From NCBI RefSeq assembly GCF_900537995.1, contig NZ_LR027880.1:2860001-2924000 (forward strand): 64,000 bases of DNA, given 5' to 3'. Made by a program: the position numbers and the translations under genes. Below, piece by piece: positions 7,401-37,058 of the stretch (its first letter is position 1; the number at the start of each line of letters is the position of its first letter). The stretch comes from Roseburia intestinalis L1-82. GTDB taxonomy: Bacteria > Bacillota > Clostridia > Lachnospirales > Lachnospiraceae. The notes below the pieces were generated by a model. That model ran no database searches. It was not told where the DNA came from and saw only the letters and a program-made list of their open reading frames with translations.

Positions 7401-8042
7401 AGCCGGATGCTCCGGATTTAATGCATGTGCACGGAATGCTTCAACTGCGTCCATGTTGCACATTTCTTTTAAGTCAGCGTAATCCCATTTCTCGATCTTC
7501 TGGATCTCGTGGGATGTACGGAAACCATCGAAGAAGTTGATGAATGGAACTTTTCCTTCGATTGTTGCAAGATGTGCAACCGGGCTTAAGTCCATAACTT
7601 CCTGTGGGTTGGTCTCACATAACATAGCGAAACCTGTCTGACGGCAGGCATATACGTCACTGTGATCACCAAAAATATTTAAAGACTGTGTAGCAACTGT
7701 ACGTGCAGATACATCGAATACACATGGAAGCTGCTCACCTGCGATTTTGTACATATTCGGGATCATTAATAAAAGACCCTGTGAAGCTGTAAATGTAGTT
7801 GTTAAAGCACCTGCAGCAAGAGAACCGTGAACGGCACCTGCAGCACCTGCCTCAGACTCCATCTCTACGACTTTTACCTGATTACCAAAAATGTTCTCCT
7901 GTCCTGCTGCAGACCACTGATCTACGGTATCTGCCATCGGGCTGGATGGTGTAATTGGGTAAATAGCTGCAACATCAGTAAACGCATAAGCTACATGAGC
8001 TGCGGCTGTATTACCGTCCATTGACTGTTTTGCTCTGGACAT
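4497..8042 (-). CDS. nifJ: Pyruvate:ferredoxin (flavodoxin) oxidoreductase
   Basis: This 1181-aa single-chain enzyme oxidatively decarboxylates pyruvate with CoA to acetyl-CoA, reducing ferredoxin; it is a central enzyme of anaerobic gut Firmicutes. Domains in order are: pyrimidine-binding domain (AIYPITPSSPMAD), transketolase-C-like and gamma domains, a two-[4Fe-4S] ferredoxin domain (CIQCNQCAFVC and CMGCGECITVCP), and a C-terminal thiamine-diphosphate domain (GDGWAYDIGFGGLDH, EMYSNTGGQ). A further CxxC pair (SCAGCAE) supplies the third cluster. Length is normal. A GGAGG ribosome site precedes ATG 8042. It is monocistronic, with its own terminator. The codon use looks highly biased, as expected for an abundant protein. 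Confidence 0.97.
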   Translation of the reverse strand: MSRAKQSMDGNTAAAHVAYAFTDVAAIYPITPSSPMADTVDQWSAAGQENIFGNQVKVVEMESEAGAAGAVHGSLAAGALTTTFTASQGLLLMIPNMYKIAGEQLPCVFDVSARTVATQSLNIFGDHSDVYACRQTGFAMLCETNPQEVMDLSPVAHLATIEGKVPFINFFDGFRTSHEIQKIEKWDYADLKEMCNMDAVEAFRAHALNPEHPAMRGSHENGDVFFQHREACNTAYNELPAIVEKYMAKINEKLGTNYDLFNYYGAEDADRVIVAMGSVNDVAEEVIDYLTAKGEKVGLIKVRLYRPWVSEAFLKVLPKTAKKVAVLDRTKEPGALGDPLYLDVATTLREAGLDTIVLTGGRYGLGSKDTPPSSLFAVYKELEKDAPKSRFTIGIVDDVTNLSLPEVKPAPITAAEGTVECKFWGLGGDGTVGANKNSTKIIGDHTDKYIQAYFQYDSKKTGGITISHLRFGDKPIRSPYYINQADFVACHNPSYVTKGFKMVQDVKPGGVFMINCQWSDEELEHHLNAAAKKYIADNNIQLYTINAIDKAIEIGMGKRTNTILQSAFFKLANVMPIEEAVDFMKQAAKKSYGKKGDAVVEMNYKAIDAGVDAVHKVEVPASWSNPAADPAPKKLTGRPETVKMVEDLMNPISLMDGDSLPVSAFMGNPDGQFEHGAAAYEKRGTAVTVPTWNAEKCIQCNQCAFVCSHATIRPFMLSEDEVKAAPSNIKVADTKPKASEYKYTMSVSPLDCMGCGECITVCPVGAIEMVPQESQADEQPVFDYLVANVSKKPGMPADNTVKGSQFNQPLLEFSGSCAGCAETSYARLITQLFGEHMYISNATGCSSIWGGPAATSPYTVNKDSKKGPAWANSLFEDNAEHGLGMQIGQEVLRDQAIASAEKCAASDKASAELKAAFDKFVETKNDTKANTPATEALVAELEKAAAAGCPDAKAALDKKDYLAKKSVWIFGGDGWAYDIGFGGLDHVLASGHNVNVMVFDTEMYSNTGGQASKASNIGEVCQFAAAGKDIGKKSLAEIAMSYGYVYVAQIALGANMAQAVKVLAEAEAYNGPSLIIGYAPCELHGVKGGMNHCQDEMKKAVAAGYWNLFSFNPALKAEGKNPFTLTSKPGDGSYQDFLNNETRYSRLTRSFPERAQKLFAASEEAAKARYEHLQRLVELYK

Positions 8043-24923: not shown

Positions 24924-26504
24924 TTACTCCTCCCCAAAAGCATAATTCCATTCAATCTCTACTCTCTTATCCCTGTATATGATAACCTTTTTAATGAATA
25001 CATCCACCGCTTCCTGCGTCAGCTTTTCCATCTGAGAAAACCGGATAATCTCTTTTATATCCTGTTTCGGTCGGTTGTATTCCTCCGTAAACCTGCCAAA
25101 TGCAAGCTCTGCTTCTTCTATTTTACATGACAGCTCCTCCATCTGTAAAGCGATTCCATCCGCCCTGCTGCAGTATTCTCCTGCTTCTATCTGCTTTACA
25201 GCATAGTTTTCGTACAATGTATCTTTCTCTGTCTGCAAACTCCGATACTGCATCCGATAATTACCCAGCTCTTTATTTAGTCTGCTCAATTCCACTTTCT
25301 GAAATTGTTCAAGACTCTCACGCTGTTTTATCAAATCTCCACGGCGCATCAACTCCCGGTACAATTCCGTCAACACAATCTCTTCCAGAATGTCTGCCCT
25401 AAAATAAGTACAGCAGTCCGGTATCTGCAGCAGGGAATGTTTCCTGCACCAGAAATGATTTGGCATCTTACCATTGTTTCTCTGCGGTTTATAGTTGATC
25501 GCATATCCACACCCGCCACAATATATTTTCCCTGTCAGTGGGTGTTTTTCCCGTTTCCTTTTCGTGGACTGTTCCGGGCGGTAAGCAGATGCAAGTGCAA
25601 ATACCTCCGGCGTTACCAGCGGCTCGTGATGATCCGTAATTACTTTCCACTCCTCCTTTGGCACAGCAATCCCGTTTTTACTTCCAACAGACTTGCGGAC
25701 TGATTTACCGTAAGCCATTTCGCCCAGATAGAAACGATTATTCAGGATTCTCCTCACTGCCGTATTGCTCCATGTATGATGCTCCCTTTCCATTTTCCTC
25801 TCAGGATGACGCATCTGTGTAACAGTCGGCGTCTGCTTGGCAATCAGCTCCTTTGCTATCTGCGTACTGCTCATTCCTTTTTCTGCCAATGAGAAGATAT
25901 GGCGGACGATTTCTGCCTCCTTTTCATTGACAATCACCGTATTTTTTTCAATTTCACTCTTGGCATAACCAAAAGGAACCTGTCCGAATACATATTCCCC
26001 ATTTGCACATTTATTTTGAAATGATGTTTTTACTTTGACCGATATATCCTTACTGTAAAGGTCATAGAGAAGCGTCTGGAAAGCAGTATCCAGCGGGGTG
26101 GTACTTCCTTCATGCTCCCTGCTGTCATAATGGTCATTTACGGCAATGAACCGCACTCCCATAAAGGGGAAAATCTGGTTGAGATAATCACCCAGTTCTA
26201 TGTAATCCCTTGCAAACCGGGACATATCCTTTACCAGAATACAACTGATTTTACTCTGCTTTACCTGTTTTAACATCTCCTGCAGCCCCGGTCTGTCCAT
26301 ATTCGTACCGGAAAAACCGTCATCACAAAATTCTGCAACCTCCTGTCCCATTAGTTCAGCATCATTTCTGATATAATCTAAAAGCATTTTCCGCTGATTG
26401 GAAATACTGTTGCTTTCCCGCTGCTCTGTGGAAGCTTTACCGTCCAGGGCATCATCCTCTATGGAAAGGCGGAGATAGATTGCAATCTTCCTGCTGTCTG
26501 TCAT
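24924..26504 (-). CDS. Large serine recombinase 1
   Basis: A 526-aa site-specific serine recombinase. The resolvase/invertase catalytic domain (about 5-160) has the nucleophile S14 in IYLRLSIED and the DMSRFARDYIE motif. It is followed by the recombinase domain, a zinc-ribbon segment (CGGCGYAINY with later CRKH and CCTYF) and a C-terminal coiled coil. It resembles TnpX-type recombinases of clostridial integrative elements. Its start overlaps the stop of recombinase 2 by 4 bp (ATGA), showing translational coupling. A GGGGAGG hairpin overlaps its stop codon. It is last of the three-gene set. Confidence 0.92.
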   Translation of the reverse strand: MTDSRKIAIYLRLSIEDDALDGKASTEQRESNSISNQRKMLLDYIRNDAELMGQEVAEFCDDGFSGTNMDRPGLQEMLKQVKQSKISCILVKDMSRFARDYIELGDYLNQIFPFMGVRFIAVNDHYDSREHEGSTTPLDTAFQTLLYDLYSKDISVKVKTSFQNKCANGEYVFGQVPFGYAKSEIEKNTVIVNEKEAEIVRHIFSLAEKGMSSTQIAKELIAKQTPTVTQMRHPERKMEREHHTWSNTAVRRILNNRFYLGEMAYGKSVRKSVGSKNGIAVPKEEWKVITDHHEPLVTPEVFALASAYRPEQSTKRKREKHPLTGKIYCGGCGYAINYKPQRNNGKMPNHFWCRKHSLLQIPDCCTYFRADILEEIVLTELYRELMRRGDLIKQRESLEQFQKVELSRLNKELGNYRMQYRSLQTEKDTLYENYAVKQIEAGEYCSRADGIALQMEELSCKIEEAELAFGRFTEEYNRPKQDIKEIIRFSQMEKLTQEAVDVFIKKVIIYRDKRVEIEWNYAFGEE

Positions 26505-28243
26505 TTTTTCACCTGCCTTTCCATCAGTGCATCACTGTATGTAAATAAGACTTCCACCATTTTCCCCGGATACACATAGATTTTATCTATCAGCGATTCA
26601 ATAAGCTCCCTGGTAAGTACCTGTTCATTCTTTAGTTTTATCAATGCACGGACTGCTTTCAGATAGGTTTCTCCGTCACGCTCAAGGCTTACTTCCTGCT
26701 CTCTGAAGTTCTTCTCCTGCTTCTCCAAATCCCGCAGCCTGTTTTCCTTACACATTTTATACTCCACATAGTCTTTCTGCGAAAGACCGCCCGTGCGGTA
26801 TGCCATATACTTCCCGCTTTCTTCCTCTGCAAGCCGGAGCTTTGTGCAGACCACGGCATGAAGGCTCTGCTCCAGTTCCTGCTTTTTTTGCCGGATGATT
26901 GCTCTTGCAGTATCTAAATACATTCTCTGTTTTTTCAAGTCCACATCAAATTCTTTTTCAAACAGTACAAAAAGGATATCCGTCAACGCATTTTTCGAGA
27001 TACGGTTAGAGGACGGACAGTTATCTGTTTTGGTTGCTCCGCCATTCCTACAAAAATAACCATCCATACGGTTTTTACTATCATCCGCATAGTGCTTCAC
27101 ATAGCTGTGTCTTGTCATTTTCCGCCCGCATACACCACAGTACAGCACCTTGTCAAAAATATTTTCTCCGATTGGGCAGCCTTCCGTTGGATGAGCATGG
27201 CTTTTTGTCTGCTCCCGCAGTTTCTTCCTTACTCCGGCCGCTTCCTTCCCAATCTCCGGCGTGATCAGCGGCTCATGGGCTTCTTCTTTTACCACCCAGT
27301 CATCTTCCGGCTTGTGAATGCGGTTATTTTCATCCCTTGCAGTAATGCTGGTCTTTCCCTGTACCAGCTTTCCAGCGTAAGTGTCACTTTTAATAATGCG
27401 TTCCACACCACTTTTATCCCATCCTTTGTAAGCTGCATCCGGTGGGCAGTAGACCTCTCCCGTTTTGTGATAGACCGCCGGCGGATTGATCTTACGAGTG
27501 TTCAGATCATCCGCAACTGCCGTATAGCTTTCCGTCTCAATAAATTTCTGAAAAATGTATCTGACAATCTCCTCCGTATTTTCATCCGGTATCAGCCTGC
27601 GTACTTTGCCCTCCCAGACTGCCTTATACCCATAAGGTGCAGGACCGCCCACATAGGAGCCTTCTTTTCTTCTCTGTGCCAGAGAAGCTTTCGCTTTCAC
27701 GGAAAAATCCTTAGCATACATATCATTTACCAGATTCTTGATTTCCGATACCATCTGTTTCGTTTCATTGCCGCCTGCCCCGGTATCAAAGCCATCCGCC
27801 ACGGCTATGAAACGCACACCAAGGAACGGGAAAATCTTCTCTATATAATTTCCGGCTTCCAGATAATTTCTGCCAAAACGGGACAGGTCTTTTACGATCA
27901 CACAGTTAATGTCTCCCATGCGGACATCCTGCATCAGCCGCTGAAACGCACCCCGGTTAAAATTGGTTCCCGTCTTTCCCAAGTCGATATAACAGTCTAC
28001 AACTTCGATTTTATCCGTATGTTCTCCGTTCCATTCCTCAATGAATTTCCTGGCGATCTCTATCTGCACCTCTACTGATTCATTCTTTGAAGTTTGCCTG
28101 CAAACTTTTTTGTCTATATCTGCGGAGAGTCTGGCATAAATACCAGCCTTATACTGCCTGCTCTTTTGATTCTTAGCAGCACTCGTGGGTGTGTCCGAAC
28201 CTTTTCCCGCTGACTGCCTCTTTGATGTTCTTCCCATACTCAT
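26501..28243 (-). CDS. Large serine recombinase 2
   Basis: A 580-aa serine recombinase. An extra basic N-terminal tail of about 30 residues precedes the catalytic domain with S40 in IYARLSADI and VKDLSRFGRNYLE. The recombinase and zinc-ribbon regions follow (CGVCGRKMTRH, CRNGG, CPSS) and a coiled coil ends the protein. It overlaps genes on both sides by 4 bp, so the trio is translated in series. The three proteins differ considerably from each other, which argues against a recent tandem duplication and for distinct roles, such as the two strands or the excision and integration directions. Confidence 0.92.
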   Translation of the reverse strand: MSMGRTSKRQSAGKGSDTPTSAAKNQKSRQYKAGIYARLSADIDKKVCRQTSKNESVEVQIEIARKFIEEWNGEHTDKIEVVDCYIDLGKTGTNFNRGAFQRLMQDVRMGDINCVIVKDLSRFGRNYLEAGNYIEKIFPFLGVRFIAVADGFDTGAGGNETKQMVSEIKNLVNDMYAKDFSVKAKASLAQRRKEGSYVGGPAPYGYKAVWEGKVRRLIPDENTEEIVRYIFQKFIETESYTAVADDLNTRKINPPAVYHKTGEVYCPPDAAYKGWDKSGVERIIKSDTYAGKLVQGKTSITARDENNRIHKPEDDWVVKEEAHEPLITPEIGKEAAGVRKKLREQTKSHAHPTEGCPIGENIFDKVLYCGVCGRKMTRHSYVKHYADDSKNRMDGYFCRNGGATKTDNCPSSNRISKNALTDILFVLFEKEFDVDLKKQRMYLDTARAIIRQKKQELEQSLHAVVCTKLRLAEEESGKYMAYRTGGLSQKDYVEYKMCKENRLRDLEKQEKNFREQEVSLERDGETYLKAVRALIKLKNEQVLTRELIESLIDKIYVYPGKMVEVLFTYSDALMERQVKK

Positions 28244-29925
28244 GCACTCCTTTCCCTGCCGCTTTCCTGCCCCGAAAGTGCAGTGACATATTCCTGCATG
28301 ATCCGGTATTCATCCCGAAAATAAAACTCTATCTCAAGTCTTTTATCCTCGAACACATAAATCCGCTTTACCAGACTCGTCAAAGTATGCCGGTCAATTT
28401 CAGCAAGCTTCAGGGAATCCTGAAATTTTGCCAGCCTTGAAGCACTGACTACACCTTTCTGCAGCATCCGCCGTATCATGTCCTGTTGCTGTTCCTGTGC
28501 TTTCTCCAGTTCTTGTGCCTTGCGCTGAAACTCCTTGTGCAGACGTTCAAATTCTTCCTTTGTTACGACATTCTGCCTTAGATCGTCATAGAGTCCTGCG
28601 CAGAGACCGTAATACTTATCCTGCTCCTGTTTCAGCCGTGTAAGCTCCTTCTGGCATCCCGCAACTGCTTCCAGATTTGTCTCTTTTTCTTTCGCCTGTT
28701 CAAAAAGTTTACTCTGCGCTAAAAAGTCATTGGCATATCTGCGAACCGCAATGCCCACCAATTCCTTTAAAGTATTTTCCTCTATGCTGTGGCGGCTGCA
28801 TCCCTCGCCCCGGTTTTTTGTGGAACAGATATAGTACACCTTATTGGATTCCTTATACCGGACTCTGCGCCGCACCATCTGTTCTCCGCAGTCCCCGCAA
28901 AACAGAAGTCCCATGAATGGACTTAAGCTTTTGCTTTCCGGGCTTACCCGTCCGTCCGTCTGAAGAAGATTCTGTACCGCTTCAAAATCACTGTCTGAAA
29001 TAATAGGCTCATGGGTATTTTCCGCACGCACCCATTCTTCCTTTGGTTTCTCAACACTCTTTTTCACCTTATAATTGACTTTCTCTGTCTTGCCTTGCAG
29101 CAGGTGCCCCAGATAAACTTCATTGGTCAGGATACGCTTTACCGATGAACTGCTCCACTGTGAACCGGAGCCGCCGGTAAACCCGCCCCGGTAGTTAAGC
29201 CCCGTAGACTTTTTATATTCTTTCGGGGAAAGAATGTGCAGCTCGTTCAGCTTCTTTGCAATGGCAGACACCGCCATTCCCTCAATTTTCCACCGGAATA
29301 TCCTGCGTACAATCTCTGCCGCATAATCATCCACCACCAGCTTGTTCTTATTCTCCGGAGACTTGCGATAGCCATATGCGGCAAAAGGTGATAAGCATTC
29401 CCCGGCTTTCCGTTTCACTGCAAGCTGGCTTTTTACCTTGGTGGAAATGTCCCGGCAATAAGAATCATTGATAAAATTCTTGACCGGAATCACGATCTGG
29501 CGTTCTCCGGTGTCTGCCGATATGCTGTCGTAATGATCAGTTAAGGCAATGAAACGCACACCAAGAACCGGGAATATCTTTTCCAGATACCTCCCGGCTT
29601 CAATGTAATCGCGCCCAAAACGGGACAGGTCTTTCACAACCACGCAGTTAACCCTGCCCGCTTCAATATCTTTCATCATTCTGTTAAATTCTGGTCTGTC
29701 GAAATTACTGCCGGAAAAGCCATCATCTACATAAATGTCATAGAGTTCCATATCCTCCTGTTCATTTAAAAAGGAACGGATCAACTCCCTCTGACTTCCT
29801 ATGCTGTTGCTTTCGGCTTTAGATACGCCATTTATCATGGCGTTGCCATCATGCTCCGCTTTCACATTGTCATCTCTGGAAAGACGCAGATACATGGCGG
29901 CAAAGAATTTAGATTGTTCTTTCAT
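28240..29925 (-). CDS. Large serine recombinase 3
   Basis: A 561-aa serine recombinase, first in the trio. The catalytic S16 lies in MYLRLSRDD, with VVKDLSRFGRDYIEA further on; then the recombinase domain, zinc ribbon (CGDCGEQMVRRR and CSTKNRGEGCSRH) and a long coiled coil (about 440-530). The start at 29925 has a CAGGAGTG site; the longer in-frame extension upstream has no ribosome site and is rejected. Serine recombinases of this size integrate and excise clostridial mobilizable elements. Confidence 0.92.
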   Translation of the reverse strand: MKEQSKFFAAMYLRLSRDDNVKAEHDGNAMINGVSKAESNSIGSQRELIRSFLNEQEDMELYDIYVDDGFSGSNFDRPEFNRMMKDIEAGRVNCVVVKDLSRFGRDYIEAGRYLEKIFPVLGVRFIALTDHYDSISADTGERQIVIPVKNFINDSYCRDISTKVKSQLAVKRKAGECLSPFAAYGYRKSPENKNKLVVDDYAAEIVRRIFRWKIEGMAVSAIAKKLNELHILSPKEYKKSTGLNYRGGFTGGSGSQWSSSSVKRILTNEVYLGHLLQGKTEKVNYKVKKSVEKPKEEWVRAENTHEPIISDSDFEAVQNLLQTDGRVSPESKSLSPFMGLLFCGDCGEQMVRRRVRYKESNKVYYICSTKNRGEGCSRHSIEENTLKELVGIAVRRYANDFLAQSKLFEQAKEKETNLEAVAGCQKELTRLKQEQDKYYGLCAGLYDDLRQNVVTKEEFERLHKEFQRKAQELEKAQEQQQDMIRRMLQKGVVSASRLAKFQDSLKLAEIDRHTLTSLVKRIYVFEDKRLEIEFYFRDEYRIMQEYVTALSGQESGRERSA

Positions 29926-30058
29926 GTTATCACTCCTGACTTTTTTGTTAGGGGGAAGCCGGTGGCTTTTCCATTCCATAAAATCAGGAGTTACGCTGAT
30001 TTGTCCTGATATTAGGTTAGCATAGATAAGAGGATTTTTCAATCCAAATATAAATTTT

Positions 30059-30328
30059 TCAAATATGAATTTCGGATAACCTTTGCAGATATTCCGCCAT
30101 TTTATCATCTATGCTGGCTCCGTCTTTTTGGAACCTGACCTTAACTACATAATCACCGATCCGATTGACATAGACATTGTTCGTCTGCCTTGCAAACGCA
30201 TCCAGCTTCTTCTCCACAGGCAGGGATGTATCAATCTCTATGTCCCTCAAATCAGTCAGAGTGGAAATATCTACCGTCCTTATATCCACGGCAGCCATTT
30301 CTTCAAGTCTTTCCTTTGTCAGTTCCAA
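30059..30328 (-). CDS. DUF6870-like small protein of mobile elements
   Basis: An 89-aa acidic protein, no signal or membrane segment, with a charged helical start (LTKERLEEMAAVDIRTVDIS) and a beta-rich end (NRIGDYVVKVRFQKDG). I recognise it as the DUF6870 type seen beside serine recombinases in Lachnospiraceae elements; the function is unknown. The start codon is TTG at 30328, directly after AGGAGAG. It lies between the recombinase trio and the helicase, all on the minus strand. Confidence 0.65.
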   Translation of the reverse strand: MELTKERLEEMAAVDIRTVDISTLTDLRDIEIDTSLPVEKKLDAFARQTNNVYVNRIGDYVVKVRFQKDGASIDDKMAEYLQRLSEIHI

Positions 30329-30419: not shown

Positions 30420-30548
30420 TTACATCCCTGTTATTTCTTCCAATGCTCTCATACATTCTATAGCCCCAGCAACTGCAATACAGGCCGCCAGAAACATAAC
30501 AGCAAGGGCGCCTGCTGCAGCGCCCACAACGATCAACACGATTTTCAT
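30420..30548 (-). CDS. 42-aa single-pass membrane protein
   Basis: A tiny ORF beginning MKIVLIVVGAAAGALAVMFL and ending with a short charged tail (ECMRALEEITGM). The N-terminal 30 residues are a glycine/alanine-rich membrane helix. Its ATG overlaps the helicase stop codon (ATGA), the same coupling used in the recombinase trio, which supports its being translated. No homologue is recalled. It could be a toxin-like or accessory membrane peptide of the element. Confidence 0.5.
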   Translation of the reverse strand: MKIVLIVVGAAAGALAVMFLAACIAVAGAIECMRALEEITGM

Positions 30549-32554
30549 TCTTCTTCCCACTCCTTATCCATAAAATAACTGTCTGCTTTCTTCCTTATAA
30601 TAAAGTCTGCCACATCCATGAGCCTGTCCGTGACCGGCATGGTCGGCAGGGTATTCAGAATTTCCGCCCGGTATCTGCCACGCAGGGATGCCCTGCTGTC
30701 TAAAATGGAAAATACCGCTGTATCCTTTTCCCTGCGGATACCGCGCCCGAACCACTGCCTTAGTTTAATCAGCATTTCCGGGATGATGATGTCCCTGCGG
30801 TATAAATCAAAGTCCTCATACAGGTTTCTCTGGTATTCCATGACCGGATCCGGCACGGGAAACGGCAGTTTTACTACAATTAGGCTGGAAAGTATATCCC
30901 CTGCAAGGTCAATTTCCTCTCCGGCACTGTCACTGGCAAACAGCACTCCGTTTCCGCTTCTTCTAAAGCTACTTATTACATCCAGTCTGCCTCTGCCCAT
31001 AAGAAACAACGGATAATCAGAAAGCTGCTCCTTCAGACCATAGAACACCCTTTCCATGAGCCAATAGGATGTAAAAAGGATCAGGGTATGCCCATGAGTG
31101 GCAGACACTATCTGCAATATTTCCGCCATGACCGCCTGTATGTAACTGTCATCCCAGATATTCGGAAACGGCATACGCTCCGGTATATAGAGCAGACCGT
31201 TACTCTGAAAATCAAAGGGTGAGGGCTTGCTGGTTTCCATGATTCTTGATAAAGCTGCAAAGGAAAGCCCTGTCATTCTCTTAAAGTGCCCAAAATCCCC
31301 CCGGACTGACATTGTGCCGGACGTAATAATAACCGGTATCGGTCTGCTCCAGATGTCACGGAATAAAACCTGTTCCAGTTCCATTGGAACCGCACACAGG
31401 GCAAGCCTGCCGTTCTCCCTCTTTTCCATCCAGCAGATTGAATTTCCGCTGTTTAGAAATACGGTCAGCTTGTCCGTCAGCTCCTGACAACGCTTTTTCA
31501 GGCCCTGCATCCGCATTTTTTGTCCGCTGTTTTCCTGATAGGATAAGGGAAGCTGCTCTAAAGCCTTTGCCATGTGCCTTATGTAAATTTTTTCCATGGA
31601 ACCTATCACTATTTCAATCCTGCTTCCCTCTCTGGTGTGGTTTCCTGCTAAATCTCCCGCCAGTCTGTCAAATATCTGTCTGTTATATTCCGCAAGCTGA
31701 CTCCGCAATACAGTAAGTTCATCCATGCCTGTGGTTCTTCTGTTCACTTCACTCAAACCCACGATAAATTCCGCATCCTGCTCGTCCCAGACTGTGCTGT
31801 ACATCTGTCTTGCGGCATCTATCAGCTTGTGGGACTCATCAAACACCATTGCCCCATATCCCGGAAAAAGAGGTTTTCTGCCCTGCTTCTGTCCAATCAG
31901 ATCGGCAAGGATATAATTATGGTTCGTAATCTGAAAATCAAAATTATCCGTCATGCACTTTTTCTTAAAATTCATAAATCTGCATAAAAGCGAATAAGGA
32001 CATGACTTATTGCAGCGAAACACGTTGATTCTGCCTTTTACATATGGTGTCAGCACGGCATCATCCAAATCAATCCTGTCAAATTCCTGCTCCCTAAGCC
32101 TTGCCAGTTCCAGTATCAGATTGGCATCCACTTCTCTCTGCAATTTTTTTATGGATGTCTCATATATCTTCAATCTGGAGTCACAGACATAATGCCGTTT
32201 TCCTTTCCGCACCACAAAAGATAATGGTTTGTCAATTATATGGTGTTCTAAAAGGATCCCGGATATCTGCGGTATGTATTCCTCTGTCAATGCTTTCTGC
32301 AGGGCTATGGTGGATGTTGATATGACTGCCGGAATCTTCTTATCTGAATAAATGTTATGTACCGTCAGTGCAAGGATATATGCGTGAGTTTTTCCTGTCC
32401 CCACTTCCGCCTCACATAAAGCCAGTTTGTTTTCCTGCAATACCCGGAGCATTTCAAGAGAAAGTTCTTTCTGCTTTACCCTCAGATTCATTCCATGTTT
32501 CGGTAAAATCTCATCAAATAAATAAATTAATAATTCTTCTGCACTCTTTGCCAT
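30545..32554 (-). CDS. DinG/XPD-type ATP-dependent helicase
   Basis: A 669-aa superfamily 2 helicase. Walker A is EVGTGKTHAY (about residue 50); the Walker B/DEAH box reads FDESHK; four cysteines (YVCDSR, FRCNKSCPYSLLCR) form the expected Fe-S cluster of the XPD/DinG group. The C-terminal helicase half has GVLFASDSAGEEIDLAG and ends with an arginine-rich QWFGRGIRRE motif VI. DinG-type helicases unwind 5'-3', acting on recombination or replication intermediates. Here it belongs to the mobile element. Upstream lies an unusual 340-bp structured leader. Confidence 0.88.
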   Translation of the reverse strand: MAKSAEELLIYLFDEILPKHGMNLRVKQKELSLEMLRVLQENKLALCEAEVGTGKTHAYILALTVHNIYSDKKIPAVISTSTIALQKALTEEYIPQISGILLEHHIIDKPLSFVVRKGKRHYVCDSRLKIYETSIKKLQREVDANLILELARLREQEFDRIDLDDAVLTPYVKGRINVFRCNKSCPYSLLCRFMNFKKKCMTDNFDFQITNHNYILADLIGQKQGRKPLFPGYGAMVFDESHKLIDAARQMYSTVWDEQDAEFIVGLSEVNRRTTGMDELTVLRSQLAEYNRQIFDRLAGDLAGNHTREGSRIEIVIGSMEKIYIRHMAKALEQLPLSYQENSGQKMRMQGLKKRCQELTDKLTVFLNSGNSICWMEKRENGRLALCAVPMELEQVLFRDIWSRPIPVIITSGTMSVRGDFGHFKRMTGLSFAALSRIMETSKPSPFDFQSNGLLYIPERMPFPNIWDDSYIQAVMAEILQIVSATHGHTLILFTSYWLMERVFYGLKEQLSDYPLFLMGRGRLDVISSFRRSGNGVLFASDSAGEEIDLAGDILSSLIVVKLPFPVPDPVMEYQRNLYEDFDLYRRDIIIPEMLIKLRQWFGRGIRREKDTAVFSILDSRASLRGRYRAEILNTLPTMPVTDRLMDVADFIIRKKADSYFMDKEWEEE

Positions 32555-32630: not shown

Positions 32631-32985
32631 CTAACAAAAATGAGCTTCCATCCAGCCCATGATTTCTACTGCTTTATAAAAAGGTGCATCAGCCATCCTG
32701 CCGGTAAGCAGGCATCATAAAAGCCGCCCACATTCTTTCTCAAACGTGGGTGTGCATTTTCCCGTCACTTATGCGGGCCACTGGCGTGGAAGTATCATTA
32801 TTTCCGACCGGTATCATCGCATCCTGCCCCACCACGGGCAGTAAAGCCACAGGTAGTTCCCGCTCAGGATAGTGCGGTTCTTTTCACACTGATCCGTCAT
32901 GGCGTATCCTGACTTGTGCTTTCCGGCTCTCCGGCCGGTCGGATGTGTGCCTGATGCACAGATATGAAGTTGTCAAAGTGCAGTA
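32631..32985 (-). ncRNA. Candidate structured leader RNA / micro-ORF region upstream of the helicase
   Basis: This gene-free stretch is more GC-rich than nearby intergenic DNA and full of hairpins on the minus strand: an 8-bp stem TCAGGATA/TATCCTGA (32905-32912 with 32864-32871) enclosing AGTGTG/CGCACT, CCGGC/GCCGG (32934-32938 with 32923-32927), CCCAC/GTGGG (32746-32750 with 32727-32731) and CCTGC/GCAGG (32708-32712 with 32697-32701). It also carries four very short ORFs in series: 32814-32900 (28 aa, MTDQCEKNRTIL...), 32740-32817 (25 aa, MIPVGNNDTSTP...), 32689-32733 (14 aa) and 32631-32696 (21 aa, MADAPFYKAVEI...). The first pair and last pair overlap stop-to-start. A structured RNA, a translational leader, or both, is possible. 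Confidence 0.5.
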
Positions 32986-33013
32986 AAAGGGGAATATTTT
33001 AGACAAAAGAAAA

Positions 33014-33046
33014 CCCCTTCACCTAATTCGCCGCTAGGTAAAGGGG
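33014..33046 (-). terminator. Terminator between the helicase leader and the radical SAM cassette
   Basis: CCCCTTCACCTA (33014-33025) pairs with TAGGTAAAGGGG (33035-33046), and TTTTCTTTTG follows on the minus strand. It would stop leftward transcription arriving from the cassette and so insulates the helicase region. Confidence 0.75.
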
Positions 33047-33073
33047 GCTGCCGAAAAAATTTTCATTTTATTT

Positions 33074-33200
33074 TAATATGGTAACGATAATTAGGAATTA
33101 TGGGGTGGATTTCAGCAATCATGTAGATGAGATGGGAGAGAATCTATCGTTATCTGTTGGAAATACAATAGAATTTCGATATAAGATAATACACAATTAT
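33074..33200 (+). repeat. 127-bp inverted repeat, left copy
   Basis: This is 95% identical (6 mismatches counted) to the reverse complement of 35962-36088. It starts at TAATATGG and ends at CACAATTAT. Both copies keep a reading frame open and contain the perfect palindrome ATAATTAGGAATTAT (33087-33101 here). No recognisable promoter lies upstream of this copy. Confidence 0.9.
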
Positions 33201-33239
33201 CTAATTTCATTGTTTACAGTTTTACGTGGGAGGGCTAAC

Positions 33240-34325
33240 ATGGAATATTTTGTTTATATGACAAACGACTGCAATTTAAAATGTGAATATTGCTCTGTTT
33301 TACTGGATTGTGAAAAAAACAACCTGCCAATTAAGCCTGCATACAGTAATGGTGAACTTATAGAATTTATAAAACAGACGCAGATGTTAACTGGAGATAA
33401 TGAAATTTCTATATATTTTTTTGGTGGAGAACCATCACTGGAATATGATGACATAGAAAGACTCATTGATATTGCAAAAAAGGAATTATCTAGTTTTTCT
33501 TTAAAGTTTGTACTGCATACAAATGGATTACGTCTTGATGTTTTGCCGGATAAAATTCTCAATGAATTAACACTAATAATGTTTTCTATAAACTATGAAA
33601 AAATTCCGCATCATATCCTACATCCGAGTTATTTTTCTACTATTATTGATAACGCTTTATCGATAAAGGAAAGAAGACCCATACCTATTATTGCCCGTCT
33701 CACTGTTACAGAAAAGACAAGTATATTTACTGAACTTTTACAAGTAAGTAATTTTTTTGATTATGTTTATTGGCAGATTGAGAACTGCGACACTTTTAAC
33801 AATGCAACCGTATTTAAGAATACATACATATATGAAGTAGAAAAAACATTTGAATATTGGCTTAAATATTTAGAACAAGGAGTTATGCTTAAATATATTC
33901 CTTTTATGGCTGTTTTAAAATTCATGTTTTTTCATGATAGAAATGATAATGAATTTTCTTGCGGTTATAGCCGAGGGATGATTTATATTCAAACAAATGG
34001 AATGTGTTATGCATGTAGTGATAATGTTGAAGGAAACGTTCATTATATGGGAGATATTCATAAAGGAGTGACTCTTCCACATCATAAACTGACTGAATTT
34101 AAATGCAACAAATGTCCTTATCGCTCTCTTTGCATGGGAAGATGCGGAAGAATGCACGTAGAATTTTCAATAGAGCATATTAATGATTATTGTCAAATGA
34201 ATCAAGCTATGTTTAAACTTTTCCTGAATAACAAAGAACTTTTGGAACAAATAATAGAACGAAATCCTACATTCAAAGATGAATTAGAAAATTGGATATT
34301 GGAATACACAGAATTTACACCATGA
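33240..34325 (+). CDS. Radical SAM/SPASM-type protein
   Basis: A 361-aa iron-sulfur radical SAM enzyme. The CxxxCxxC cluster motif is at the extreme N-terminus (C11, C15, C18 in TNDCNLKCEYC); FFGGEPSLE follows as the SAM-binding GGEP. The C-terminal part has a SPASM-like cysteine set (SCGYSRGM, CYACSDN, KCNKCPYRSLCMGRCG, DYC) that would bind auxiliary clusters, as in peptide-modifying maturases. ATG 33240 has a perfect GGGAGGG site; the frame is open 54 codons further up through the inverted repeat, but that stretch has no ribosome site. No precursor peptide is evident nearby. AT-rich compared with flanking chromosome. It converges on the TIR-GNAT gene, and no promoter is visible in its present orientation. 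Confidence 0.85.
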   Translation: MEYFVYMTNDCNLKCEYCSVLLDCEKNNLPIKPAYSNGELIEFIKQTQMLTGDNEISIYFFGGEPSLEYDDIERLIDIAKKELSSFSLKFVLHTNGLRLDVLPDKILNELTLIMFSINYEKIPHHILHPSYFSTIIDNALSIKERRPIPIIARLTVTEKTSIFTELLQVSNFFDYVYWQIENCDTFNNATVFKNTYIYEVEKTFEYWLKYLEQGVMLKYIPFMAVLKFMFFHDRNDNEFSCGYSRGMIYIQTNGMCYACSDNVEGNVHYMGDIHKGVTLPHHKLTEFKCNKCPYRSLCMGRCGRMHVEFSIEHINDYCQMNQAMFKLFLNNKELLEQIIERNPTFKDELENWILEYTEFTP

Positions 34326-34341
34326 CAAAAACAATACAGAC

Positions 34342-34379
34342 AATACCTCAGATTAGCCTAAACGGTAATTTGAGGTATT
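34342..34379. terminator. Terminator between the two convergent cassette genes
   Basis: AATACCTCAGATTA (34342-34355) pairs with TAATTTGAGGTATT (34366-34379), with one mismatch, and ATCTGTTTTTTCG follows on the plus strand. It separates the radical SAM and TIR-GNAT genes. Confidence 0.75.
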
Positions 34380-34414
34380 ATCTGTTTTTTCGTAGATTGT
34401 ACTGAGTATCAGTG

Positions 34415-35893
34415 TCAAAAAAGGTCTTTTAATTCTTCATATTTTTCCTTATAATATTTCATTAATTTACTTCCAAAAGAAGATCTTAACTGCCATGAGG
34501 GCGGTAATAATGTTGCACCATATATTTTTGTTTCAATTTCCGTGTTAAGCATACAATTCAAACCTAATATTTTACAAAATTTCTCTCCTTGCAGGGTTGA
34601 GGCTTCTGTTATAATATTTGTGATATAAATTTCTCTTTCAACCGCCAGGTCCATCATCATTTGCAATAGCGCATTATATAATTTTCGAAAAGCGGAAGTA
34701 TTTTGATAATCCGGGTGTATACATACGCATGCAATATACAATTTATAAAAATCAGGGACATCATATTTTCTTAAATTATCAGTATTTAAATCATTATCTT
34801 TAAAATAACCTGACTGTATATCCTCATAAAGCTGATCTGTCACCGGGAGGACCGTAAAATATCCAACAATTCTATTTGTTTCTGTACTACGAACGGCAAT
34901 ATGTGTATAATTATTATACTGATACCAAGCATATGTAATACTAGGTGGAGCAATTAAATCTTCTCTAAGAACTAAACAATCAATTTCATACATGGTAATG
35001 AAATCTTCATATGAAAGGTCATCAGGCCATACTATTTCAAATCTGTCTTGAGGTATTATTTTGTTATGCAATAAATATTTTGAGTACCATTCCAGGATTG
35101 CCGTCATGCTCATTTCAGCAAGCTTTCTGCGATCCAAATCATTAGTCAATAATGACATATTTGTATCTAATGCCGGAGTGCTTAAAAGTTTTAAATGCTC
35201 ATATACATTTTCTGTTAACCCGATAGATGAAACTTTTATTAAATCTAATTTTCCAATTGTCGTATCAACAGAATTTCCTTTAATCGGGAGACGCATAAAT
35301 AAATCATTGATAATAGTAATTGCTATTTGAGATGCATGTAAAACAGCAGTGCGTACATTTATCTCAACAATTTGTTCATATTCACTTAACAGTATGCTAA
35401 TGGTGTTTGCTGTAGGCGTATCACATGAATGAAATTTTTTTACAGCTTTGTGGAAAGATATTTCGGGAAAATCTTTTTCATATTTTTTCTTAATCTGAAT
35501 GATATTACTACATAATTCATCGACGCAAAGATCTATGTTATCGGGATCTAATTTGATGTATTTCAACGACAGCAGCATAGGAAATCGTTGGGCAATATCT
35601 TCAACTGAAACATTACATAATACAGGAATTAATTTATGATTATTATTTTGTCCTATTGCAAGACCAATTTCGACAGGTGTCCAAAAACTTTCAAAAAAAG
35701 CGGGTGTAATGATAAGGATTGTGCATAATGCTGTTGCTACCCCTTTTTCCACTGCATCCAAGATAGTATCTCCTGCTAATATTTCGTTAGCATCTAGCCA
35801 AACATCAATATTATTTTTTTCTAATTTTTGCACTAATTCAAGCACGATTTTCTCTTTATCTTTTGACGAATGTGATATAAAAGCATCGAACAT
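34415..35893 (-). CDS. TIR-domain protein with C-terminal GNAT-like domain
   Basis: A 492-aa fusion. Residues 1-140 form a TIR domain (MFDAFISHSSKDKE, DVWLDANEILAGD, ITPAFFESFWTPVEIGLA); E75 in TPVEIG aligns with the catalytic glutamate of NAD-consuming TIR domains. A middle helical region (about 145-270) follows. The C-terminal part (about 280-450) looks like a GNAT acetyltransferase, with a beta-strand RIVGYFTVLPV and an acetyl-CoA-loop-like segment CIHPDYQNTSAFRKLY. TIR proteins often act as NADases or signalling enzymes in phage defence. The GNAT fusion is unusual, and whether it is catalytic is unknown. ATG 35893 has an AGAGG site. A near-consensus promoter lies upstream, beyond the inverted repeat. 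Confidence 0.82.
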   Translation of the reverse strand: MFDAFISHSSKDKEKIVLELVQKLEKNNIDVWLDANEILAGDTILDAVEKGVATALCTILIITPAFFESFWTPVEIGLAIGQNNNHKLIPVLCNVSVEDIAQRFPMLLSLKYIKLDPDNIDLCVDELCSNIIQIKKKYEKDFPEISFHKAVKKFHSCDTPTANTISILLSEYEQIVEINVRTAVLHASQIAITIINDLFMRLPIKGNSVDTTIGKLDLIKVSSIGLTENVYEHLKLLSTPALDTNMSLLTNDLDRRKLAEMSMTAILEWYSKYLLHNKIIPQDRFEIVWPDDLSYEDFITMYEIDCLVLREDLIAPPSITYAWYQYNNYTHIAVRSTETNRIVGYFTVLPVTDQLYEDIQSGYFKDNDLNTDNLRKYDVPDFYKLYIACVCIHPDYQNTSAFRKLYNALLQMMMDLAVEREIYITNIITEASTLQGEKFCKILGLNCMLNTEIETKIYGATLLPPSWQLRSSFGSKLMKYYKEKYEELKDLF

Positions 35894-35961
35894 ATTGAAC
35901 CTCTACATTAACCATGTTTTATTCCTAAAAGCTAAATTATCTTTCTTTTCATCAATAAAGA

Positions 35962-36088
35962 ATAATTGTGTATTATCTTATATCGAAATTCTATTGTATT
36001 TCCAACAGCTAACGATAGATTGTCTTCCATCTCATCTACTTGATTGCTGAAATCCACCCAATAATTCCTAATTATCATTACCATATTA
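35962..36088 (-). repeat. 127-bp inverted repeat, right copy
   Basis: This is the partner of 33074-33200 in inverted orientation. It forms the 5' untranslated region of the TIR-GNAT gene; the -10 of the promoter ends 1 bp outside it. The palindrome ATAATTAGGAATTAT is at 36061-36075. A 50-codon reading frame (to 35932) crosses it but has no ribosome site and its ATG lies at the predicted transcription start. Confidence 0.9.
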
Positions 36089-36117
36089 ATTATACAAATT
36101 TTCCCAAGATTTAGCAA
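36089..36117 (-). promoter_or_regulatory. Promoter facing into the inverted-repeat cassette
   Basis: The -35 TTGCTA (36112-36117), a 17-bp spacer and -10 TATAAT (36089-36094) sit between the tyrosine recombinase stop codon and the right inverted repeat. They read leftward into the cassette. The equivalent position outside the left repeat (TTATTT) has no such elements. Confidence 0.75.
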
Positions 36118-36119
36118 TC

Positions 36120-37058
36120 TTAATATACCAAATTATCGAAATTTTCTCCTATATTTATCTTATTTCTCGGATGTCTTGTCTGCAGTATCTCTTTTTCCTT
36201 CTCAGTCGTTACATATGTATATATCTGCGTTGTGGTAATCGAAGCATGTCCCAGCATTTTTTGTATGTATCTGATATTTACGTCCTCCTCCATCAGATAG
36301 GTCGCAAAGGAATGCCGGAACATATGCGGTGTAATATTTATATCTGCCTGAATTTCACCGGCATATTTATGTATCATGCTCCTGGCTGATTGCTCAGACA
36401 GCGCATTTCCATAACGATTGACAAAAAAATATCCCTGCTTCTTTATCTCATCTTCAAAGGACTTTTTGTAGGCATTCAGTATAGACAGTACGTCATTATT
36501 TCCTATTTGAAGATATCGCTCCTTTCCTCCCTTGCCCTGAATACACAACACACCGTTTTTTAAGTCTACATATTTATTTTGCAAATGGCACAATTCCGAG
36601 ATGCGCAGCCCTGTAGAAAAAAGCGTCTCCACTACTGCGATATCTCTTAAAATGATTTTTTTACGCCACTCTGAATATTCTTTAATACTTCTTTCCTTAT
36701 AAAGATGATTCAGCAACTGCTCTATAATATCTCTCGGAATAATTTTGGGTAAAATCACTTCCTCCCGAAACTTTGTCTTTACTTTATGGAATGGATTTAT
36801 CTCTATCAGTTCTTCTTCCTCTAAATAATGAAACAGTGCCTTCACGCTGGCAATTTTCCTCTTGACTGTTTTTTGCTTATACATACGGTGAAGGTATACA
36901 AGATATGCATTCAGCACTTCTTTATCTGGATTATTTTCTCCTATCACTGTAATAAACTGTTCCAAATCCGCCTTATATGCCTTTATCGTCTTATCCTTAA
37001 GTTCCTTTTGAAATTTACAATAGTTCAAATATTTATTGATTTCTTCTTTTAAAAGCAT
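36120..37058 (-). CDS. Tyrosine recombinase (XerC/XerD type)
   Basis: A 312-aa tyrosine site-specific recombinase with a SAM-like N-terminal DNA-binding domain (about 1-95) and a catalytic domain. All catalytic residues are visible: R152 in STGLRISEL, K176/K179 in GKGGKE, H245 and R248 in HMFRHSF, H271 in LGHASI, and the nucleophile Y280 in QIYTY. Length and layout match Xer-like enzymes, including those that flip invertible promoters, rather than large phage integrases. ATG 37058 follows AGGAGG by 8 bp. Its stop lies immediately outside the promoter and the inverted repeat of the cassette, so it is the prime candidate to invert it. It could alternatively be the integrase of an element. Confidence 0.9.
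   Translation of the reverse strand: MLLKEEINKYLNYCKFQKELKDKTIKAYKADLEQFITVIGENNPDKEVLNAYLVYLHRMYKQKTVKRKIASVKALFHYLEEEELIEINPFHKVKTKFREEVILPKIIPRDIIEQLLNHLYKERSIKEYSEWRKKIILRDIAVVETLFSTGLRISELCHLQNKYVDLKNGVLCIQGKGGKERYLQIGNNDVLSILNAYKKSFEDEIKKQGYFFVNRYGNALSEQSARSMIHKYAGEIQADINITPHMFRHSFATYLMEEDVNIRYIQKMLGHASITTTQIYTYVTTEKEKEILQTRHPRNKINIGENFDNLVY

What the first reader, a model, noticed from the sequence alone, without database searches (positions are those of the whole stretch)
33074..37058. Candidate phase-variable cassette: radical SAM and TIR-GNAT genes between inverted repeats, with a tyrosine recombinase alongside
Seen: 127-bp inverted repeats (33074-33200 and 35962-36088, 6 mismatches) enclose two convergent genes, each starting just inside its repeat. 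A good promoter (TTGCTA-17-TATAAT, 36089-36117) lies immediately outside the right repeat, whose edge coincides with the predicted transcription start; the left flank has no promoter and carries an outward insulating terminator (33014-33046). A terminator (34342-34379) separates the two genes. A complete Xer-type recombinase ends 3 bp before the promoter. Inference: inversion would place the radical SAM gene behind the promoter and silence TIR-GNAT, giving two alternative states. I know of no described system pairing TIR-GNAT with a radical SAM enzyme this way.
Basis: partly seen in the sequence, partly recalled or inferred. Interest (0 to 1): 0.85.

Follow-up and report, generated by a model that had tools for sequence, protein, structure and literature searches.

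The report
Flip-flop cassette: TIR-acetyltransferase versus radical-SAM gene
A bacterium of the family Lachnospiraceae carries two tail-to-tail genes, an immune-type TIR-acetyltransferase and a radical-SAM enzyme, between inverted copies of a site that the neighbouring recombinase likely cuts, so the segment is predicted to flip and would switch which gene is on; the same layout recurs in related bacteria, once in the opposite orientation.

Summary
In detail: 128-nt inverted repeats (95%) around convergent radical-SAM/SPASM and TIR-GNAT genes, an Xer-type recombinase alongside, a candidate inward promoter. Each repeat has a dif-like dyad, RATAA-N7-TTAT; in nine complete cassettes the 7-nt spacer is identical within the outer pair and different between loci, as expected of recombination sites. 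The motif, defined on the TIR loci, also lies near 8 of 9 other relatives of the recombinase (10 sites, 0.35 expected); four of those are complete cassettes with other convergent cargo, including STAND-like NTPases (mostly sub-threshold matches) opposite enzyme genes. Metagenomic contigs with either gene peak at cassette length. Not shown: inversion within a strain, and exclusive expression; promoter evidence is weak, and some loci have promoter-like sequence on both flanks. Best reading: a two-state switch working like the phage Mu G segment but run by an Xer-type recombinase. Biochemical roles are unknown.

The parts
33014..33046 (-). intrinsic-terminator-like hairpin just outside the left repeat, would stop leftward transcription leaving the cassette
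33073..33200 (+). left arm of the inverted repeat (5' leader of the radical-SAM gene)
33086..33102 (.). outer recombinase core-like dyad GATAA-TTAGGAA-TTATG, left copy
33185..33201 (.). inner core-like dyad GATAA-TACACAA-TTATC, left copy
33240..34325 (+). radical SAM/SPASM protein, 361 aa, peptide-maturase-like fold
34342..34379 (.). strong hairpin between the convergent genes, likely bidirectional terminator
   Evidence: z -5.6 and -6.2 for 34326-34414
34415..35893 (-). TIR-GNAT fusion protein, 492 aa (TIR about 1-138, GNAT about 284-462)
35961..35977 (.). inner core-like dyad, right copy
35962..36089 (-). right arm of the inverted repeat (5' leader of TIR-GNAT)
36060..36076 (.). outer recombinase core-like dyad, right copy, same spacer TTAGGAA
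36089..36117 (-). promoter-like sequence TTGCTA-17-TATAAT pointing into the cassette
   Evidence: such matches are not above chance density
36120..37058 (-). Xer-type tyrosine recombinase, 312 aa, 3' end pointing into the cassette, 44 bp from the outer core

Best explanation
This is a two-gene DNA cassette bounded by inverted copies of a short dyad that is likely the target site of the Xer-type recombinase encoded next to it, and the recombinase is predicted to flip the cassette so that transcription entering from the recombinase side would drive TIR-GNAT (present orientation) or the radical-SAM enzyme (other orientation). Shown by sequence: the convergent gene pair, the inverted sites with matching spacers, the recombinase placed outside one site and transcribed towards it, the hairpin between the genes, the recurrence of this layout with other repeats and other cargo, and opposite orientation in A. 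woodii. Inferred: strand exchange at the outer dyad, reversible flipping in the living population, and one-at-a-time expression. Inferred from families: TIR-GNAT is a NAD-processing, acetyltransferase-linked conflict effector, and the radical-SAM/SPASM protein modifies a peptide or protein. The cassette would then give a clonal population two standing subpopulations, one armed with the TIR effector, the other with the enzyme.
For: Convergent TIR-GNAT and rSAM between inverted repeats in 5 of 5 loci found with both genes: window, L015, L016, L019, L022. Repeat sequences differ between loci, while the arms match at 91-100% within L015, L016, L019 and L022. Recombinase-proximal gene: TIR-GNAT in window and L016, rSAM in L019. 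A RATAA-N7-TTAY dyad in every arm; outer-site spacers identical within all 9 complete pairs and different between all 9 loci; in L064 and L103 the repeat is only 19-20 nt, i.e. the dyad itself. Motif tested on recombinase loci not chosen for TIR-GNAT: 10 strict sites, 0.35 expected from shuffles, in the 9-15-kb stretches around 8 of 9 recombinases. The exact outer core occurs without mismatch only at the two repeats in the genome. The recombinase 3' end faces the site in 7 of 7 complete cassettes with a linked recombinase, at -4 to 613 bp. Contigs of 2-5 kb: 32 of 68 TIR-GNAT and 30 of 72 rSAM contigs fall at 2.5-3.0 kb, the cassette size, against 4 of 29 for the recombinase control. Intergenic hairpins z -4.4 to -10.7 in window, L016, L022.
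Against: No reads, so inversion within a strain is not shown. Promoter-like sites are no denser than chance, and a 9/12 match points at the left repeat too; A. woodii (L019) and L022 have promoter-like sequence on the TIR side, so exclusive expression is not general. L015 has no recombinase match in the 13.5 kb fetched, L022 none on its 6.5-kb contig. At whole-genome level the motif GATAATN5RTTATC does not separate genomes carrying the recombinase or a cassette (12 of 13 have a match) from those without a close recombinase (36 of the 53 given, of 80 available). Sites near the other recombinases are not all adjacent: 3.7 kb away in L067, 5.4 kb in L072. No hairpin between the genes in L019 or L103, no gap in L015, L064, L068. 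The window's outer dyad lacks the final C of the consensus, and L015's inner pair differs at one spacer base. The contig-length peak would also arise from repeats longer than the assembly k-mer. The opposite orientation in A. woodii is a between-species difference at 49% identity.
Confidence: 0.68

Rival explanations
1. The segment inverts, but both genes are expressed in either orientation from promoters on both flanks or inside the repeats; flipping only changes levels or regulation.
For: A. woodii TIR-side flank carries an extended -10 (TGCTATAAT, read) and the recombinase side TAAACA-16-TATTAT; L022 TIR side reads TTGAAA-17-TATAAT; the window's left flank has a 9/12 match at 32970-32998. 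Each repeat is also a shared leader; in A. woodii it ends in the likely ribosome-binding site of both genes.
Against: In the window only the recombinase flank has a 10/12 match directly at the repeat; hairpins insulate the genes in three loci.
Confidence: 0.22
2. The repeats are not recombined: they are duplicated leader/operator sequences that let one regulator control two convergent genes, and the dyads are its binding sites.
For: Dyads lie in the leader of both genes; similar dyads exist in genomes without a close relative of the recombinase (36 of 53 given).
Against: The spacer is identical within each outer pair and different between loci, also where the matching part is only the 19-20-nt dyad, which an operator does not need; the same dyad flanks unrelated cargo beside the same recombinase family; orientation differs in A. 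woodii.
Confidence: 0.06
3. The inverted sites are the ends of a mobile unit that the recombinase excises or moves, with no regulatory switch.
For: Recombinase lineages and cargo are not clearly co-inherited: the three TIR-cassette recombinases are not recovered as one clade (weak support); three large serine recombinases lie nearby in the window.
Against: Sites are inverted, which in tyrosine recombination gives inversion, not excision (general knowledge); the recombinase lies outside the sites in all 7 linked cassettes; the cargo is convergent in 9 of 9 complete cassettes, which mobility does not require.
Confidence: 0.04

Closest known systems
Phage Mu G segment / P1 C segment (Gin, Cin)
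   Same: About 3-kb segment between inverted sites, invertase gene alongside, two alternative gene sets reading inwards (layout recalled; passages of PMC12529663 seen give the 3-kb and 4.2-kb segments and the host-range role)
   Different: Gin and Cin are serine recombinases acting on tail-fibre genes; here the enzyme is an Xer-type tyrosine recombinase and the products are TIR-GNAT and a radical-SAM enzyme
Gut-bacterial invertons with nearby tyrosine recombinases (for example inverton group 139 with invertase group 35, mostly Clostridia)
   Same: Inverted repeats of Clostridia linked to a nearby tyrosine recombinase family (PMC11892184: abstract, section 8 and passages)
   Different: The passages seen describe intergenic and gene-overlapping invertons, not two-gene cassettes; whether group 139 has this dyad could not be checked (supplement not readable)
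XerC/XerD-dif
   Same: The recombinase is an Xer paralogue; the site has the ATAA-spacer-TTAT layout of dif (dif recalled)
   Different: Below the XerC/XerD cut-offs, spacer 7 not 6, sites in inverted pairs beside the gene
C. difficile RecV switches (Cdi1, Cdi4)
   Same: Clostridial phase variation by a tyrosine recombinase (PMC5903667 passages)
   Different: Short invertible regions controlling adjacent genes; no alternative gene pair inside (partly recalled)
TIR defence proteins (Thoeris ThsB, TIR-APAZ, AbTir)
   Same: TIR fold with invariant Glu75 and Trp71
   Different: Fused to a helical middle part and a GNAT domain; no known partner of those systems among the cassette proteins scanned

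Membership tests
Site-specific invertible element (inverton) of a tyrosine recombinase | inverted repeats around the segment | tested here: met
   also L015, L016, L019, L022, L064, L068, L069, L103
Site-specific invertible element (inverton) of a tyrosine recombinase | core site with spacer identical in both copies | tested here: met
   9 of 9 complete outer pairs; the weaker inner pair of L015 differs at one spacer base
Site-specific invertible element (inverton) of a tyrosine recombinase | recombinase encoded nearby | tested here: met
   window 44 bp away; 7 of 9 complete cassettes; not in fetched DNA of L015 and L022
Site-specific invertible element (inverton) of a tyrosine recombinase | both orientations occur | tested here: inconclusive
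   opposite orientation only between species; no reads available
Mu G-segment-type two-way gene switch | two alternative gene sets reading inwards with promoter outside | tested here: inconclusive
   inward convergent sets met in 9 of 9 complete cassettes; outside promoter only predicted
Mu G-segment-type two-way gene switch | serine invertase (Gin family) | tested here: not met
   PF00589 tyrosine recombinase
XerC / XerD | NCBIfam curated cut-off | tested here: not met
   230 against 335.15 and 226.5 against 329.6 bits
TIR NADase | catalytic glutamate | tested here: met
   E75 invariant in 40 rows; that this is the catalytic residue is inferred from family knowledge
TIR NADase | NAD cleavage | not testable with these tools
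   -
Thoeris | ThsB with ThsA partner | tested here: inconclusive
   only the TIR part matches ThsB models; no ThsA among the proteins scanned, whole neighbourhood not scanned
Radical SAM/SPASM peptide maturase | CxxxCxxC and SPASM cysteines | tested here: met
   C11, C15, C18 and C241, C256, C259, C289, C292, C298, C302, C318 invariant in 37 rows; fold near anSMEcpe and sactipeptide maturases
Radical SAM/SPASM peptide maturase | a precursor peptide gene | not tested
   no systematic search for small peptides was made
PapB family | NCBIfam cut-off | tested here: not met
   81 against 340 bits
TIGR04084 (AF0577) family | NCBIfam cut-off | tested here: not met
   157 against 225 bits
Prokaryotic viperin | NCBIfam cut-off | tested here: not met
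   39.1 against 180 bits

The most novel reading that the evidence does not exclude
An Xer-type recombinase and its GGATAA-N7-TTATCC site form a reusable 'either-or' chassis in Clostridia that makes clonal populations alternate between an immune-type effector or sensor (TIR-GNAT, STAND- or NB-ARC-like NTPase) and a chemically unrelated enzyme module (radical SAM, glycosyltransferases, carbamoyltransferase, GNAT-PLP/dehydrogenase): a phase-variable choice between two conflict strategies, never both in one cell.
Probability: 0.38. Interest if true: 0.88.

Novelty: new variant of a known kind. Interest (0 to 1): 0.74.

Why it matters
From general knowledge, phase variation by inversion is mostly known for surface structures, restriction specificity and regulators. 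A switch that exchanges a TIR effector for a radical-SAM enzyme, kept across distant Clostridia and built on a site/recombinase pair that carries other STAND-like cargo, would mean that some immune-type genes are held as alternative states within a clone. The report gives a concrete site, recombinase and set of loci, so inversion and exclusivity can be tested with sequencing reads and a two-plasmid assay.

Tried and rejected
Repeat as coding sequence or precursor peptide: the frame from 33078 reads through the left repeat into the rSAM, but the ORFs of L015, L016 and L022 start at MEYF/MEYY and the other loci's repeats are unrelated in sequence; rejected. The translation of the right copy was one base out of frame and is not used.

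Not phage- or plasmid-borne in what was found.

Known defence system: PADLOC matches of TIR-GNAT lie in its TIR part, the rSAM matches viperin models weakly, the L015 kinase one model at E 0.003; none for 8 other cargo proteins at E 1e-4.

One recombinase clade for TIR cassettes: not recovered (most forks weak). The recombinase family itself is very common (7,276 of 8,000 scored candidates at E <= 1e-30), so it is not specific to these cassettes.

Genome-wide presence of the motif as a marker of the recombinase: failed.

Literature: ten searches listed no paper that I recognised as being about the TIR-GNAT/radical-SAM pair or this cassette; the one paper holding all three words (PMC10853773) uses them in unrelated passages. 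PMC7159879 and PMC8195603 were searched for terms only: PMC7159879 has one passage on a radical-SAM effector of another conflict system.

Full report
CHECK OF THE OBSERVATION. The repeats are real: 33073-33200 and 35962-36089, 128 nt, 95% complementary, 2,761 nt apart, with no other match in the 4,493,348-bp genome at E <= 0.001. They enclose a radical-SAM gene (33240-34325, +) and a TIR-GNAT gene (34415-35893, -), convergent; a 312-aa Xer-type tyrosine recombinase (36120-37058, -) ends just outside. The inward promoter TTGCTA-17-TATAAT is there, one of three 10/12 matches, but promoter-like matches are as frequent as in shuffles (27 against 25.8, sd 4.9), and a 9/12 match at 32970-32998 (+) points at the left repeat. 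The outward terminator at 33046-33014 is there. The hairpin between the genes folds on both strands with z -5.6 and -6.2.

THE SAME PAIR ELSEWHERE. One scan of the species-genome contigs with the TIR-GNAT sequence had 68 pattern matches and returned two relatives, both full-length: L015 (86%) and L016 (80%). Among 145 near relatives, 10 genomes had a match at E <= 1e-3, full-length only in the own genome. Profile searches of 397 family, 391 class, 40 A. woodii-family, 392 order and 398 phylum genomes (sets overlap) gave at E <= 1e-40 only the own genome, G241 (the L016 genome), G598, G1085 and G935; the rSAM profile found only G1085 among 48 genomes of its family. So the pair is rare. G598 is taken as Acetobacterium woodii because its single contig has the length listed for the A. 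woodii protein P0078, 4,044,777. G935 has a distant TIR-GNAT (23%) with no rSAM match in the 15 kb fetched. In all five loci with both genes (window, L015, L016, L019 = G598, L022 = G1085) the genes converge between inverted repeats: 128 nt 95%; 210 nt 98.6%; 57 nt 91% (45 perfect); 48 nt 100%; 53 nt 100%. The repeat sequences are unlike between loci apart from the dyad below. Divergence reaches 36% (TIR-GNAT) and 44% (rSAM). L015 has one extra gene on each arm (TIM-barrel protein after TIR-GNAT, APH-like kinase after rSAM), L016 one.

ORIENTATION. Where the recombinase is linked, the gene next to it is TIR-GNAT in the window and L016 but rSAM in A. woodii. This is what a flipping segment would leave, though it is a comparison between species.

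THE SITE. Each repeat arm has, at its outer end, a dyad: GATAA-TTAGGAA-TTAT (window), GATAA-TCGTGTA-TTATC (L015), (G/A)ATAA-TTTTTAG-TTATC (L016), GATAA-TTTGTAA-TTATC (L019), GATAA-TTAAAAG-TTATC (L022). The only four ATAA-N7-TTAT sites in the 64-kb window are an outer and an inner dyad in each arm. The exact outer core is found twice in the genome, both here, plus one place with 2 mismatches. The motif was then tested on recombinase loci not chosen for TIR-GNAT. Of 90 genomes of the family (Lachnospiraceae, by the title of L016), 10 have a match at E <= 1e-60, the own genome and nine others at 50-53%. In the nine stretches fetched, GATAA-N7-TTATC occurs 10 times against 0.35 expected from dinucleotide shuffles, in 8 of 9; the distance to the recombinase runs from overlap to 5.4 kb. 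Four are complete cassettes: L064, L068, L069 and L103 (the last fetched after one search showed the partner site outside the first stretch, L070). Four show a single strict site in the fetched DNA (L065, L067, L071, L072), one none (L066). Over nine complete cassettes the two outer spacers are identical in nine of nine pairs and differ between all nine loci; in L064 and L103 the repeat is just the 19-20-nt dyad. That pattern fits the homology rule for strand exchange and not a regulator's operator. The inner pair of L015 departs at one spacer base.

A CHASSIS WITH OTHER CARGO. All nine complete cassettes hold two gene sets that meet tail to tail. The four without TIR-GNAT: L064, 506 aa against 337 aa, no Pfam match at E 1e-3; L068, an 815-aa protein with a sub-threshold nSTAND6 match against an alcohol-dehydrogenase-like and a GNAT-SHMT-like protein; L069, a carbamoyltransferase (N-terminal part short as called) against a 968-aa AAA_22 protein with a sub-threshold NB-ARC match, with a small extra gene; L103, two glycosyltransferases (one also matching GT4-conflict) against a 1,023-aa protein with sub-threshold AAA and STAND matches. 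In seven of seven cassettes with a linked recombinase its 3' end faces the site. The three TIR-cassette recombinases are not recovered as one group, with weak support, which suggests that cargo and recombinase have been re-paired.

ASSEMBLY EVIDENCE. Among the 120 listed clusters each, contigs of 2-5 kb fall at 2.5-3.0 kb in 32 of 68 cases for TIR-GNAT and 30 of 72 for rSAM, against 4 of 29 for the recombinase outside the repeats; 30 contig lengths are shared between the TIR-GNAT and rSAM lists, 2 and 1 with the recombinase list (lengths copied). So the two genes are often linked and assemblies often break at about cassette length. Three of eleven draft-genome loci with a dyad have a contig end within 85 bp of it (L022, L067, L071). 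Long repeats alone can also break assemblies; for 50-nt repeats mixed orientation is the likelier cause, but assembler settings are unknown.

HOW IT LIKELY WORKS. The recombinase would bind the dyads as Xer proteins bind dif-like arms, exchange strands in the 7-nt spacer and invert the 3-kb segment. Transcription from the recombinase side (own promoter or read-through) would enter the proximal gene; the hairpin would stop it before it runs antisense into the other. In the present orientation that gives TIR-GNAT. Flipping, promoter activity and exclusivity are inference. In L015 the recombinase would have to act from elsewhere.

AGAINST. Promoter-like sequence lies on the far flank too in A. 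woodii, L022 and, weakly, the window. Across 66 genomes the motif is found in 12 of 13 with the recombinase or (G1085) a cassette and in 36 of 53 without a close recombinase (53 of the 80 such genomes were given), so it is not a genome-wide marker. Hairpins are absent between the genes of L019 and L103. No orientation mixture was seen directly.

NOVELTY. In layout this works like the G segment of phage Mu (3-kb invertible segment and its invertase: passages of PMC12529663; inward gene sets recalled) but with a tyrosine recombinase and conflict-type cargo; it is not a member of that family. No paper on the pair turned up in the listings of ten searches of the open library; subscription papers and supplements were not readable.

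Noticed in passing
window 24924-30108 (-): Three large serine recombinases in tandem followed by a helicase (30545-32554): the cassette sits beside a probable integrative-element module.
   Followed up: partly
L066 5464-5788 / 7276-7600: A related recombinase (6313-7203) lies between 325-nt inverted repeats (91%) and its stretch has no GATAA-N7-TTATC dyad: possibly a different kind of shuffling locus.
   Followed up: no
G000:C1:1661653 and 1673426: Two identical dyads GATAATTTCTGGTTATC in the same orientation 11.8 kb apart in the own genome; direct rather than inverted, perhaps a duplicated element.
   Followed up: no
L015 5724-10529: TIR-GNAT/rSAM cassette enlarged by one gene per arm (TIM-barrel, APH-like kinase) with no recombinase in 13.5 kb; several metagenome contigs of 4,352-4,404 nt carry TIR-GNAT or rSAM relatives, close to its 4,376-nt spacing.
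   Followed up: partly
L023 7333-8730: Distant TIR-GNAT-like protein (23%) without an rSAM match or long inverted repeats nearby.
   Followed up: no
L103 113-4832: Glycosyltransferase with a match to GT4-conflict (PF20706) opposite a STAND-like protein, next to what looks by eye like a split HerA-type ATPase (no Pfam match at E 1e-5 for 760-1479).
   Followed up: partly
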